NCBI GenBank assembly: GCA_013823945.1
Contig: PNMZ01000002.1
Location: 434,001-498,000 of the forward strand
DNA: 64,000 bases
Direction of reading: 5' to 3'
DNA from: a bacterium
GTDB taxonomy: Bacteria; Armatimonadota; Fimbriimonadia; Fimbriimonadales; Fimbriimonadaceae
In this document: one piece after another, positions 18,763 through 39,910 of the stretch
Layout of the letters: each line of letters opens with the position of its first letter
How positions within the stretch are numbered: position 1 is the stretch's first letter
The notes under the pieces: model-generated
Database searches by the model: none
Told to the model about the DNA's origin: nothing
The model's input: the letters and a program-made list of their open reading frames with translations, nothing else
Made by a program: the position numbers and the translations under genes

Positions 18763-19782
18763 ATGAGGGTCACGCAGCAAGATATCGCCCGCATGGCAGA
18801 AGTCAGCCAGGCAACCGTGAGCAGAGTGCTCGCGGGGGACGCTCGCGTTGAACCAGTAACCCGCGATCGGGTTCTCAGTGTGATGGAAGAGGCGAACTAC
18901 CGCCCCGATGTCCGAGCACAGTCGCTTCGGCGAAAGCGAACTCAGCTCATTGGCATTGTATTGAAGCGGGAGCGCAACGATGTTGCCGATGATCCATTTG
19001 TCTCGGCTTTGGTCACAGAAATTACCCAAAGTCTTTCGAGTACGAACTACCATCTTTGCTTTGATATTGCCCACTCATCTAATCACCAAAGCCAAGTCTA
19101 CGACGAGATGTTGCGGAGTCGCCGAGTTGATGGTCTGCTCCTTGTTGAGCCCGAAGCCGAAGACCTCCGGTTGATTCGCCTCAGCAAAGATCAATTCCCC
19201 TTTGTCGTAATTGGTAATCCCCGCGTGGCCGCCTGGCACAGTGTAGACAACGACAATGTCCTTGCCGCCCGAATGGCAACTCTCCATTTACTCGAAGCTG
19301 GGCATCAAAGAATTACGTTCATGGCTGGCCCCAAAGGGATTGGGGTAACCGATGATCGAATTACGGGCTACGAAATGGCAATGCGTGAGCAAGGTCTAAG
19401 CCCGAAAGTTGTTCATTCTGACTTTGGACACGAAGCTGCCTACTGCCGAATGGTTGACCTTGTTGAAGCAAAACAAATCCCCGAAGCCCTCCTCGTTATG
19501 GATGACTTTATGGCGACCGGTGTTTTGAAAGCCGCCATGCAAAATGAAATTGCCATTCCGGGAGACCTAGCTATGGCAAGCTTTAATGACTCCACGATTT
19601 GCCAACTGCTCCCCCATGGTCTGACTTCCGTGAACATGAACCTGCCCATTCTCGTCAGACAGGCAGTTCACAAATTGATCCAACTCGTTGAAACTCCCGA
19701 GAAAGTCGAACCCAGCCGCTACGTTGTTCCGTGCGAGTTGGTTGTCCGGGGTTCATCGCGCCGAGGTGCTTCCCCCAAATGA
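18763..19782 (+). CDS. LacI family transcriptional regulator
   Basis: This 339-residue regulator has the LacI helix-turn-helix at residues 1-25 (VTQQDIARMAEVSQATVSRV) and hinge helix NYRPDVRAQSLRRKRT. The rest is a periplasmic-binding-protein-like sensor domain for a small ligand, probably a sugar. The stop overlaps the start of an exported alpha-amylase gene (ATGA at 19779-19782), so it most likely controls starch or maltodextrin use. Candidate operators lie at 18214 and 18685. Confidence 0.92.
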   Translation: MRVTQQDIARMAEVSQATVSRVLAGDARVEPVTRDRVLSVMEEANYRPDVRAQSLRRKRTQLIGIVLKRERNDVADDPFVSALVTEITQSLSSTNYHLCFDIAHSSNHQSQVYDEMLRSRRVDGLLLVEPEAEDLRLIRLSKDQFPFVVIGNPRVAAWHSVDNDNVLAARMATLHLLEAGHQRITFMAGPKGIGVTDDRITGYEMAMREQGLSPKVVHSDFGHEAAYCRMVDLVEAKQIPEALLVMDDFMATGVLKAAMQNEIAIPGDLAMASFNDSTICQLLPHGLTSVNMNLPILVRQAVHKLIQLVETPEKVEPSRYVVPCELVVRGSSRRGASPK

Positions 19783-36485: not shown

Positions 36486-37682
36486 TTAGGGCCATGAGTC
36501 TCGCTTGCTCGTGAGTGGGTTTAAGTATTCCGTCCAAAAATAACTCTGTTGCGGCGGAACTGAGAGGGCGATCTCATCATCAACCGTTTGGAAAGCAATT
36601 TTTATCGGATATTTACCTTCTGGAGCACCGTTGGTATTCGCATGGTCACCCCATGCATAACCTTGGGCATAAGCAACAAAGGAAACTCCGGGACGCGACA
36701 TCAAATCTCCCTTTGTATTCAAGGAAATCGTTCCTTCGATCATCCCTGCAATTCCCTTTTCAGTTCCATCTCGACCCTCCAAATTCGTCATTTTGAACAA
36801 ACCCTGGAAATGGTATTCGCTCTTTGACAATCTTGAGACCTGAATGTCCAAGGTGCGAATGTTGTCAAATCGCCACCGATTCGGTTCCCCTCGCACATTG
36901 TCAACCAAATGGAAACGGGCCAATCTACGGGCCAACTTGGCGGGCAATGGGAAGGTCGTCAACGGGTTCGATTGAATCGCCTGAATGTCTTCCGGGAAAA
37001 TCCAAAAATGATCTCGGCCAATACTTCGGTTCTTCTCTGGTGCGTCCTCTGGCAGTGGCAAAATCCGAGAAATTGAGCGAACGACGGTTGTGCCGGCTGG
37101 TCGCTCTCGACTCCAGGAACGTGGCGATGTCAGAGGCTCATGCTTAGCCTCGGGCGGACTCTTCTTGAACGATTCAAGTCCCTCATCAAGTAGCTTCATA
37201 AACTCGTCACGTTGGCGACCATGCATGCTGAATTTGTAAGCCTGTCCATCCGCACCAACAACGTAAAACCCTTGTCCAGTCACACCCTTCGTCACCCCGG
37301 GATGGACTTTTTGTGCCGTATTCAGGAACCAGCTCCTTTCGGGCGACTCCCACTTACTTACTTGGAGTTCATTTGTGTTCCCCGCGAATGGAATGAACTC
37401 TGACTTAAGACGCTGAATAACATCGGGGCGAGTGAACAAGTCACGCTTGTCCGCTTGACCATTGTTTCACGTACAGCCCGTCGGATGACCGTTCATCATC
37501 CACATGAAAATGGGCTTGTTCTGGCGATAGGCTTCCCGACGCGCCTCAAAAAGATCAAGATGCCACCCAACTTCCATCCACTTTTCTTCTTCGGGAAGGG
37601 GCCAAAGTGCATTCACTTGTTCCGATACAGTCAGTGGACTTCCGATTGTCGCAAAAAGGGCCAGCATGGGCAACATCCGCAT
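36486..37682 (-). CDS. Secreted thioredoxin-fold protein, candidate selenoprotein with in-frame UGA
   Basis: One frame of 399 codons runs across this region and is interrupted only by a TGA at 37467-37469 (codon 72). Before it are a signal peptide (MRMLPMLALFATIG) and the thioredoxin-like lead EARREAYRQNKPIFMWMMNG; the redox motif reads GHPTGCT, then UGA, then NNGQADKRDLF. After it come typical thioredoxin_7 elements (FTRPDVIQRLKSEFIPFAG) and an uncharacterised carboxy domain of about 230 residues. A hairpin fitting the bacterial SECIS pattern follows the TGA. If UGA is selenocysteine, the product has 398 residues; otherwise the gene is broken at codon 72. Sense coding on both sides in the same frame favours recoding. 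It starts eight bases after the DUF692-like gene. Confidence 0.7.
37440..37469 (-). promoter_or_regulatory. Candidate bacterial SECIS element with its UGA codon
   Basis: On the minus strand the TGA at 37469-37467 is followed after seven bases by GTCAAGC-GGACAA-GCGTGAC (37459-37440). The arms pair as GTCA/TGAC and GC/GC around one A-G mismatch, and the six-base loop starts with GG. The loop begins 15 bases after the TGA. Known bacterial SECIS hairpins have a short stem and a G among the first loop bases at about this distance. The fold is by eye only. Confidence 0.55.
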
Positions 37683-37689
37683 AGTCTAT

Positions 37690-38511
37690 TCAAATCACAT
37701 CCAAAATTGTTCGAACTCCACGGCACGATCGAATAATTTCATCCATGTCGGAACGCCATTCAAAGTTCTCACCGAATCCACCATATTCAATGGCGACAGT
37801 ATTTGGCCTCGCTGCATGTCCGTGCCTGATTGCCGCCGCAACAAACGCTGTGCATTCCCAGTCATCTTCTGTCATAGGCAATGAATCATAGAGAGTTTCG
37901 CCATTGGGTTTCAGTCCAACTCCCGCGATGTGCCACTCCCGGAGAGCATAGAGGGGAAACCGCATCAGCTCTTCCCGAAAATCAAGTCCATTTTCGATGC
38001 AAGTAATCTTCAGATGAGCCGAGTCGAGCAAGAGTCCGCAGCCAGTTTCAGAAACAATCTGGCAAAAGAACTCGCCTAGCGTGCTCACTTTTTCGGTTTC
38101 ACTTGCATCAGCCCGAGCAACCGAATTCTCGATGATCACTCGTTCGACACCAAATCTATCCGCTAATTCCAAAATTGACCTCCGGCAACTGTCTAGGTAC
38201 TGATCAACCGAACAATCGTCACCAAACCACTCACTCTTAAACACTATGTGCAGATTTGCAAATTCGCTCTCGCATTCGTCGAAAAGTCTCTCAATCCAAT
38301 CCCATTCCGGCTCCGGATGGTCGAAATTCACCACACCCGAAGGCCCAACTCCCAGGGGGAAATGGACATAAAAGCGGCCCGAAGCCGCCGTCTCTGAGAT
38401 CCACTCTTCAGCAAGGCCGGTTTTGAGCAAATCCACCGGAATTCGGCTCTTCTCTCGTGCTAGGATCGCTTGAGAACTGGCATTAATTGCAAGTTTCAAC
38501 CATGGCTCCAA
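37690..38511 (-). CDS. Divergent DUF692/MNIO-like TIM-barrel protein
   Basis: This 273-residue protein resembles the DUF692 family, multinuclear iron oxidases that modify cysteine or other residues in peptides. The matching stretch is VIIENSVA, then ETGCGLLLDSAHLKI, GLDFREELMRFPLYALREWH and IAGVG, then VAIEYGG near the end. Several expected metal ligands differ: the usual DxNN after LLLD is DSAHL, and the usual second histidine of HLAGH is a valine. It could instead be a general xylose-isomerase-like barrel. A TTG start at 38511 is used; it overlaps the dehydratase by 16 bases. The thioredoxin-fold gene follows after seven bases. Confidence 0.65.
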   Translation of the reverse strand: MEPWLKLAINASSQAILAREKSRIPVDLLKTGLAEEWISETAASGRFYVHFPLGVGPSGVVNFDHPEPEWDWIERLFDECESEFANLHIVFKSEWFGDDCSVDQYLDSCRRSILELADRFGVERVIIENSVARADASETEKVSTLGEFFCQIVSETGCGLLLDSAHLKITCIENGLDFREELMRFPLYALREWHIAGVGLKPNGETLYDSLPMTEDDWECTAFVAAAIRHGHAARPNTVAIEYGGFGENFEWRSDMDEIIRSCRGVRTILDVI

Positions 38512-39506: not shown

Positions 39507-39833
39507 TTACATTCCAGCTGCTTTCTCTGCAACCTTTGCCGAATCGTTCTTACCCATTTTCAAGCACGAATCGCAGCACATGAAGTACCGAGTGCCCTCG
39601 TGATCAACATAGCCTACGGCCTCACTCTCGTCCTTCATTTCAACTCCCATCATTGGGCAAACCAGTTTTCCGTATTTATTCTTAAACGCTACCGGCTCTG
39701 AAGTGGACCCACCTGTCTCAACCTTGGCTGCTGAGTTTGCCTCACCCGTCGGAGCAGCCGCTTCCGGTTCTGCCGCACAACCAACAAAGACGAACGCAGC
39801 AATCAAGCCCAACAACAAACTTTTCAGTTTCAT
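39507..39833 (-). CDS. Lipoprotein with YHS-type metal-binding domain
   Basis: This 108-residue lipoprotein has the signal KLKSLLLGLIAAFVFVGC with its lipobox cysteine, then an Ala/Glu-rich linker. The YHS-like domain is LVCPMMGVEMKDESEAVGYV followed by YFMCCDSCLKMG. The cysteines and methionines suggest binding of copper or another soft metal outside the cytoplasm. The ATG at 39833 is chosen because it gives the lipoprotein signal; nine earlier codons are also open. It lies 54 bases before the dehydratase start. Confidence 0.8.
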   Translation of the reverse strand: MKLKSLLLGLIAAFVFVGCAAEPEAAAPTGEANSAAKVETGGSTSEPVAFKNKYGKLVCPMMGVEMKDESEAVGYVDHEGTRYFMCCDSCLKMGKNDSAKVAEKAAGM

Positions 39834-39910
39834 AGTCAACCTTATGTTCCAAATCGGCAAATAGTTCCCTGCGCCAGCGAGAACATGCGGTGTAGACTCA
39901 CCTCATCGAA

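What the first reader, a model, noticed from the sequence alone, without database searches (positions are those of the whole stretch)
36486..37682. Candidate selenoprotein: thioredoxin-fold protein with UGA at its redox motif
Seen: one frame of 399 codons is broken only by a TGA at 37467-37469. Coding sense is clear on both sides: a signal peptide and thioredoxin-like lead before it, and RPDVIQRLKSEFIPFAG after it. The TGA falls at the redox position, directly after Gly-Cys-Thr. A hairpin just downstream (37440-37459) has a short stem and a GG-starting loop 15 bases after the TGA, as in bacterial SECIS elements. Known: Sec in bacteria is decoded by SelB at such hairpins. Inference: this is a selenocysteine codon, giving a Cys-x-Sec site; a nonsense mutation is the alternative. 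Other genes here end in TGA normally (for example at 19780-19782), so general recoding is unlikely.
Basis: partly seen in the sequence, partly recalled or inferred. Interest (0 to 1): 0.88.

Follow-up and report, generated by a model that had tools for sequence, protein, structure and literature searches.

The report
New thioredoxin-fold selenoprotein family, Armatimonadota
The apparent stop codon in the middle of this gene almost certainly encodes the rare amino acid selenocysteine, and the gene belongs to a previously uncatalogued family of probably exported redox proteins, found mostly in the bacterial phylum Armatimonadota, in which selenium sits at the active site and is hardly ever replaced by sulphur.

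Summary
The 399-codon minus-strand frame (36486-37682) is broken only by TGA at 37467-37469. Selenocysteine is strongly supported. The genome has selA, selB, tRNA-Sec(UCA) and a selD that itself has an in-frame TGA. About 50 homologous genes from other Armatimonadota, plus one Hydrogenedentota genome, carry TGA at exactly this position, inside the motif W-x-M-N-G-[HN]-P-x-G-C-T-U-N-N-G. Coding constraint is equally strong on both sides of the TGA. In 41 of 43 UGA homologues, against 1 of 7 non-UGA homologues, a bacterial-type SECIS hairpin lies 18-25 nt downstream, and its stem shows compensatory changes. UGA homologues occur almost only in selA-positive genomes (39 of 40, against 47 of 111). 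The model is a DsbD-gamma/TXNDC12-like thioredoxin domain plus a beta-barrel-like C-terminal domain. Sec takes the place of the first Cys of CxxC. The second Cys is Gly, and a Cys at -2 is the likely resolving thiol. No Pfam or NCBIfam family covers it, and none of the 119 catalogued prokaryotic selenoprotein families shows this motif. It is a new selenoprotein family. Its biochemical reaction is inferred, not shown.

The parts
36486..37682 (-). Selenoprotein gene (398 residues with Sec at 72, TAA stop)
   Evidence: Open frame broken only by TGA; homologues in 42 of 151 relatives
37467..37469 (-). UGA codon 72, read as selenocysteine
   Evidence: Aligned TGA in about 50 distinct homologous genes
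37473..37475 (-). Cys70 codon, proposed resolving Cys of the Cys-Thr-Sec motif
   Evidence: 90% or more conserved; Thr in L022 and Ala in L046
37434..37452 (-). bSECIS hairpin ggacaag-CGUGA-cuuguuc, apical loop after 21 nt
   Evidence: Present in 41 of 43 UGA homologues; covariation in relatives; zero synonymous change in the 10 codons after UGA against the nearest relative
37155..37583 (-). Thioredoxin-fold domain, residues 34-176 (DsbD-gamma/TXNDC12/AGR-like)
   Evidence: AlphaFold2 pLDDT 90.5; VIA Z 13.4 over 128 residues to 3f9u
36540..37100 (-). C-terminal mostly beta, barrel-like domain, residues about 195-381
   Evidence: AlphaFold2 pLDDT 91.8 for the part alone; no confident known match, best Z 6.9
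37626..37682 (-). Hydrophobic N-terminus, putative signal peptide
   Evidence: Sequence; clearer export signals in homologues such as L046 and L034; inference
37690..38511 (-). Upstream gene, distant MNIO/DUF692-like protein, 7 nt away, possible operon partner in this genus only
   Evidence: PF05114 40.8 bits; kept beside the selenoprotein gene in 3 genus relatives

Best explanation
This is a genuine selenoprotein gene. During translation SelB carrying Sec-tRNA(UCA) is positioned by the hairpin just 3' of the UGA, so that UGA codon 72 is read as selenocysteine. The product is probably exported and has an N-terminal thioredoxin-fold domain of the DsbD-gamma/TXNDC12 type plus a conserved beta-rich C-terminal domain. 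Sec72 sits at the N-terminus of the active-site helix, in the place of the nucleophilic first Cys of CxxC, while the second Cys position is Gly. Most likely Sec72 attacks an oxidised substrate (a peroxide, a disulphide or a similar group) and Cys70, two residues upstream, resolves it through a Cys-x-Sec selenenylsulphide that an envelope thiol system then reduces. Shown by computation: the Sec machinery, the conserved UGA, the SECIS hairpin, the coding constraint and the predicted fold. Inferred: Sec incorporation itself, export, redox chemistry and substrate. The stated confidence is for the selenoprotein reading; for the specific Cys70/Sec72 redox mechanism it is about 0.6.
For: SelA E 1.5e-115; tRNA-Sec 73 bits with UCA anticodon; SelB wing domain 63.6 bits; SelD 355 bits with its own in-frame TGA at the CAG-U-ASK site. 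TGA aligned at codon 72 in 29 of the first 30 homologues and in about 50 distinct genes overall. Hairpin in 41 of 43 UGA homologues against 1 of 7 non-UGA ones, with a background of roughly 14% (mean of the per-gene rates) in other in-frame windows of the same genes. Covariation in 4 of 5 core pairs, 97% of cells paired, 0 of 500 shuffles as high. Purifying selection on both sides of the UGA. UGA homologue against SelA: 39/40 against 47/111, Fisher p 5e-11; the one exception is a 73%-complete genome. Trx fold Z 13.4 with residue 72 at the N-cap of helix 73-82; U aligns with the first Cys of DsbD-like TGVTC-TNC proteins.
Against: No proteomic or 75Se evidence. Cys70 is Thr in L022 and Ala in L046, and some subfamilies have Cys directly before Sec, so the resolving step is not settled. 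This gene's own hairpin is only moderately stable (-5.5 kcal/mol for the simple stem) and about 2-4% of other in-frame windows of the gene do as well. Relatedness inflates the statistics.
Confidence: 0.95

Rival explanations
1. Nonsense mutation or sequencing error in an otherwise ordinary thioredoxin-like gene (pseudogene).
For: A single in-frame TGA is what a point mutation would give.
Against: The same TGA recurs in about 50 distinct genes across the phylum, with no frame damage and with purifying selection after it.
Confidence: 0.01
2. UGA is read as tryptophan or another residue by general recoding or a near-cognate suppressor.
For: The frame stays open if UGA is read as any residue.
Against: No homologue examined has TGG at this site; the alternatives are Cys, Ser and Asp. 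UGA homologues track selA, the genome has the complete Sec machinery, and SECIS-like hairpins follow the UGA.
Confidence: 0.02
3. Two separate proteins: a short 71-residue peptide and a downstream protein started inside the frame (for example TTG at 37439).
For: A 317-residue ORF starts at TTG 37439.
Against: The residues before that TTG and right after the UGA (N-N-G) are among the most conserved. The thioredoxin fold spans the UGA; either half alone would lack part of it.
Confidence: 0.02
4. A real selenoprotein whose Sec is not a thiol-type redox centre but, for example, a metal or selenium ligand.
For: The second Cys of CxxC is absent, Cys70 is dispensable in some members, Cys replacements are nearly absent in the close family, and selA-less genomes have Ser or Asp instead.
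Against: Thioredoxin fold with Sec at the classical nucleophile position and Cys70 in most members.
Confidence: 0.2

Closest known systems
VPGUxxT thioredoxin-like (seleno)proteins, NF041382/NF041383
   Same: Bacterial Trx-like selenoproteins; some members of this family give weak hits (best 4e-6)
   Different: Far below the curated cut-off (none of 101 genomes over 275 bits); VPGU instead of GCTUNNG; the window protein itself has no hit
Trx7/PDZ domain selenoprotein, NF041199
   Same: Trx7-type fold with Sec
   Different: CxxU motif and PDZ domain by its catalogue name; only one of 30 members gives a weak hit (1e-3)
DsbD C-terminal (gamma) domain, TXNDC12 and AGR2/3 thioredoxin folds
   Same: Closest solved folds of residues 34-176, Z 13.4, 12.3 and 11.7; Sec aligns with the first Cys of DsbD-like proteins
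   Different: Those have CxxC or CxxS and no Sec (from general knowledge); this has C-T-U-N-N-G and an extra beta-rich C-terminal domain
Iodothyronine deiodinases and deiodinase-like bacterial proteins (PF00837)
   Same: A Cys-Thr-Sec triplet in a thioredoxin-type fold (from memory, a lead only)
   Different: No PF00837 hit in any of 30 members; the catalogue gives UxxC for the bacterial ones (PMC13188914)
Thioredoxin-like selenoprotein Sec.1 (PF13192, CxU)
   Same: CxU motif in a Trx-like protein (PMC13188914)
   Different: No PF13192 hit; different family

Membership tests
Bacterial selenoprotein | In-frame UGA conserved at an equivalent position in homologues | tested here: met
   About 50 distinct genes
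[quoted passage not shown]
   Loop CGUGA, 7 bp, 21 nt; 41 of 43 homologues; covariation
Bacterial selenoprotein | bSECIS minimum free energy of -7.5 kcal/mol or lower (published model) | tested here: inconclusive
   The simple conserved stem has only -5.5; the best local fold of 41-56 nt has about -13.5 but in another pairing
Bacterial selenoprotein | SelA, SelB, SelC and SelD in the genome | tested here: met
Bacterial selenoprotein | Se actually incorporated | not testable with these tools
   Needs mass spectrometry or 75Se
Thioredoxin-fold oxidoreductase | Thioredoxin fold with the redox residue at the N-terminus of the active-site helix | tested here: met
   (predicted model)
Thioredoxin-fold oxidoreductase | CxxC, UxxC or CxxU motif | tested here: not met
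   C-T-U-N-N-G instead; activity not tested
VPGUxxT family NF041383 | Score over the curated cut-off (275 bits) | tested here: not met
Trx7/PDZ selenoprotein NF041199 | Model match and PDZ domain | tested here: not met
   One weak hit in 30 members; no PDZ hit in Pfam
Deiodinase-like PF00837 | Match to the Pfam model | tested here: not met
   No hit at E 0.1 in 30 members; structural relation not tested specifically

The most novel reading that the evidence does not exclude
A largely Armatimonadota-centred superfamily (subfamilies GCT-U-NNG, HC-U-QNG, C-U-GGA, C-U-TNA) in which Sec is ancestral and functionally near-irreplaceable: where Sec is lost the site becomes Ser or Asp rather than Cys in most close relatives. 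That would imply chemistry that sulphur cannot carry out here, or a Sec role other than classical thiol redox.
Probability: 0.3. Interest if true: 0.75.

Novelty: new member of a known kind. Interest (0 to 1): 0.6.

Why it matters
It adds a selenoprotein family, probably several related subfamilies, in a phylum for which no selenoprotein report was found in the library searched. The family libraries searched (Pfam, NCBIfam) have no model for it, so these genes are likely to be annotated as truncated or as pseudogenes. In nearly all known selenoenzyme families Cys forms far outnumber Sec forms (PMC13188914); here the close family is almost all Sec. That makes it a good system for asking why selenium is kept.

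Tried and rejected
Rfam scans found no SECIS-like match at the site. The single-sequence fold of the 56-nt stretch is not unusual (z -0.49), so the SECIS case rests on comparison. Covariation within the paralogue group (alignment A2) was not informative because the stem is almost invariant. The C-terminal domain gave no confident structural match (best Z 6.9). PDB sequence search gave only a weak DsbD-like hit (3f9u, 0.011). Searches for papers with Armatimonadota plus selenocysteine, or with the motif, returned nothing relevant. The phylum of L046 (titled Hydrogenedentota) has it in only 1 of 68 genomes in full length, so that copy may be a transfer or a binning error.

Full report
What was checked. 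The minus-strand frame 37682-36486 is 399 codons including a terminal TAA, with one internal stop, TGA at 37467-37469 (codon 72), directly after Gly-Cys-Thr.

Machinery. The window is part of a 3.16-Mb, 99.8%-complete genome in 19 contigs (G000:C2). Its closest named relatives are Fimbriimonadaceae/Armatimonadetes. The genome encodes SelA (E 1.5e-115), SelB, a tRNA-Sec with UCA anticodon (Rfam 73.2 bits, ARAGORN SeC) and SelD (355 bits). SelD has its own in-frame TGA at the catalytic site (CAG-U-ASK), a second and independent sign of Sec use.

Conservation. A protein search of 151 relatives gives 42 genomes with homologues, nearly all matches with exactly one TGA inside. Aligned one by one, 29 of the first 30 genes have TGA at the codon-72 position and one paralogue (L031) has TGC. 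With further genes about 50 distinct genes carry TGA there. The core motif is W-x-M-N-G-[HN]-P-x-G-C-T-U-N-N-G. Across the phylum 75 of 291 genomes match the profile. Outside it, one of 68 genomes of the phylum of L046 (titled Hydrogenedentota) has a full-length copy.

Selection. Against the 95%-identical relative, dN is 0.01-0.02 and dS 0.4-0.55 on both sides of the TGA. In the ten codons right after the TGA there is no synonymous change at all, as expected if an RNA element overlaps the code there; ten codons is a small sample.

SECIS. A scan for hairpins that obey the bacterial SECIS rules on loop, G position and spacing (PMC13188914) finds one 18-25 nt after the UGA in 41 of 43 UGA homologues at -3.6 kcal/mol or better, in 1 of 7 non-UGA homologues, and in roughly 14% (mean of the per-gene rates) of other in-frame windows of the same genes. 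In 15 genes that share one register, 4 of the 5 core pairs show changes on both sides, 97% of cells are paired and no shuffle of 500 reaches this. Those sequences were chosen for sharing the register, which favours the paired percentage.

Co-occurrence. UGA homologues are found in 40 of the 151 genomes; 39 of these have SelA, and the exception is a 73%-complete assembly. Of the 111 others, 47 have SelA (Fisher p 5e-11; relatedness not corrected). Non-UGA full-length relatives have Ser (G052, G041) or Asp (G031) in genomes without SelA, Asp in G012 (with SelA), and Cys in a G094 paralogue.

Fold and mechanism. The AlphaFold2 model (pLDDT 90.5) has a thioredoxin domain at residues 34-176, closest to DsbD-gamma-like 3f9u (Z 13.4, 3.4 A, 128 residues), TXNDC12 (Z 12.3) and AGR3 (Z 11.7), and a mostly beta C-terminal domain without a confident match. 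Residue 72 is at the N-cap of helix 73-82. In profile alignments it falls on the first Cys of DsbD-like T-G-V-T-C-T-N-C proteins. The second Cys is therefore replaced by Gly75, and Cys70 at -2 is the natural resolving partner. Cys70 is Thr or Ala in two members and shifted by one in other subfamilies (HC-U, C-U), so this step is an inference. I propose an exported Sec-dependent oxidoreductase acting on peroxides or disulphides; the substrate is unknown.

Neighbourhood. In this genus the gene follows a serine/threonine-dehydratase-like gene and, in several species, a distant MNIO/DUF692-like gene. This context was not found in the loci of other genera, so it was not used to infer function.

Comparison with the known. 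Pfam gives no hit for the window protein. NCBIfam gives only weak partial hits of some members to the VPGUxxT and Trx7/PDZ selenoprotein families; for VPGUxxT type 2 nothing in 101 relatives passes the cut-off. The 2026 catalogue of 119 prokaryotic selenoprotein families has no entry with this motif and does not mention Armatimonadetes. The library holds no paper on Armatimonadota and selenocysteine, and the only one with Armatimonadetes and selenoprotein is about Planctomycetes. Most of the subscription literature is not in that library, so novelty is relative to what could be searched.

Verdict. It is a real selenoprotein and a new family of a known kind. What is unusual is that the close family is almost entirely Sec, with few Cys forms, and that several related Sec subfamilies occur in one phylum.

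Noticed in passing
G000:C3:157489-158673(-) = L096 and G000:C3:63939-65003(-) = L097: Two further paralogues in the same genome with in-frame TGA at the aligned site (GCT-U-NNG and HC-U-QNG); so at least four Sec genes counting SelD.
   Followed up: partly
L112 1465-2544 (+): SelD of this genome is itself a Sec-containing form (CAG-U-ASK).
   Followed up: yes
L105-L108, L128, L131-L133: More distant Trx-like relatives with adjacent Cys-Sec (GRC-U-GGAF, C-U-TNARTLRA); the latter has Cys counterparts (PCANARTLRATLF) in other genomes.
   Followed up: partly
L092-L095: Close relatives in which the Sec position is Ser or Asp, three of four in genomes without SelA: loss of Sec without replacement by Cys.
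   Followed up: partly
window 37690-38511 (-): Diverged MNIO/DUF692-like protein (PF05114, below the cut-off of the NCBIfam equivalogs it matched), TTG start, no RiPP precursor identified.
   Followed up: no
window 39507-39860 (-): Small probable lipoprotein with a YHS-like Cys motif (CPMMGVEM...YFMCCDSC); no Pfam hit.
   Followed up: no
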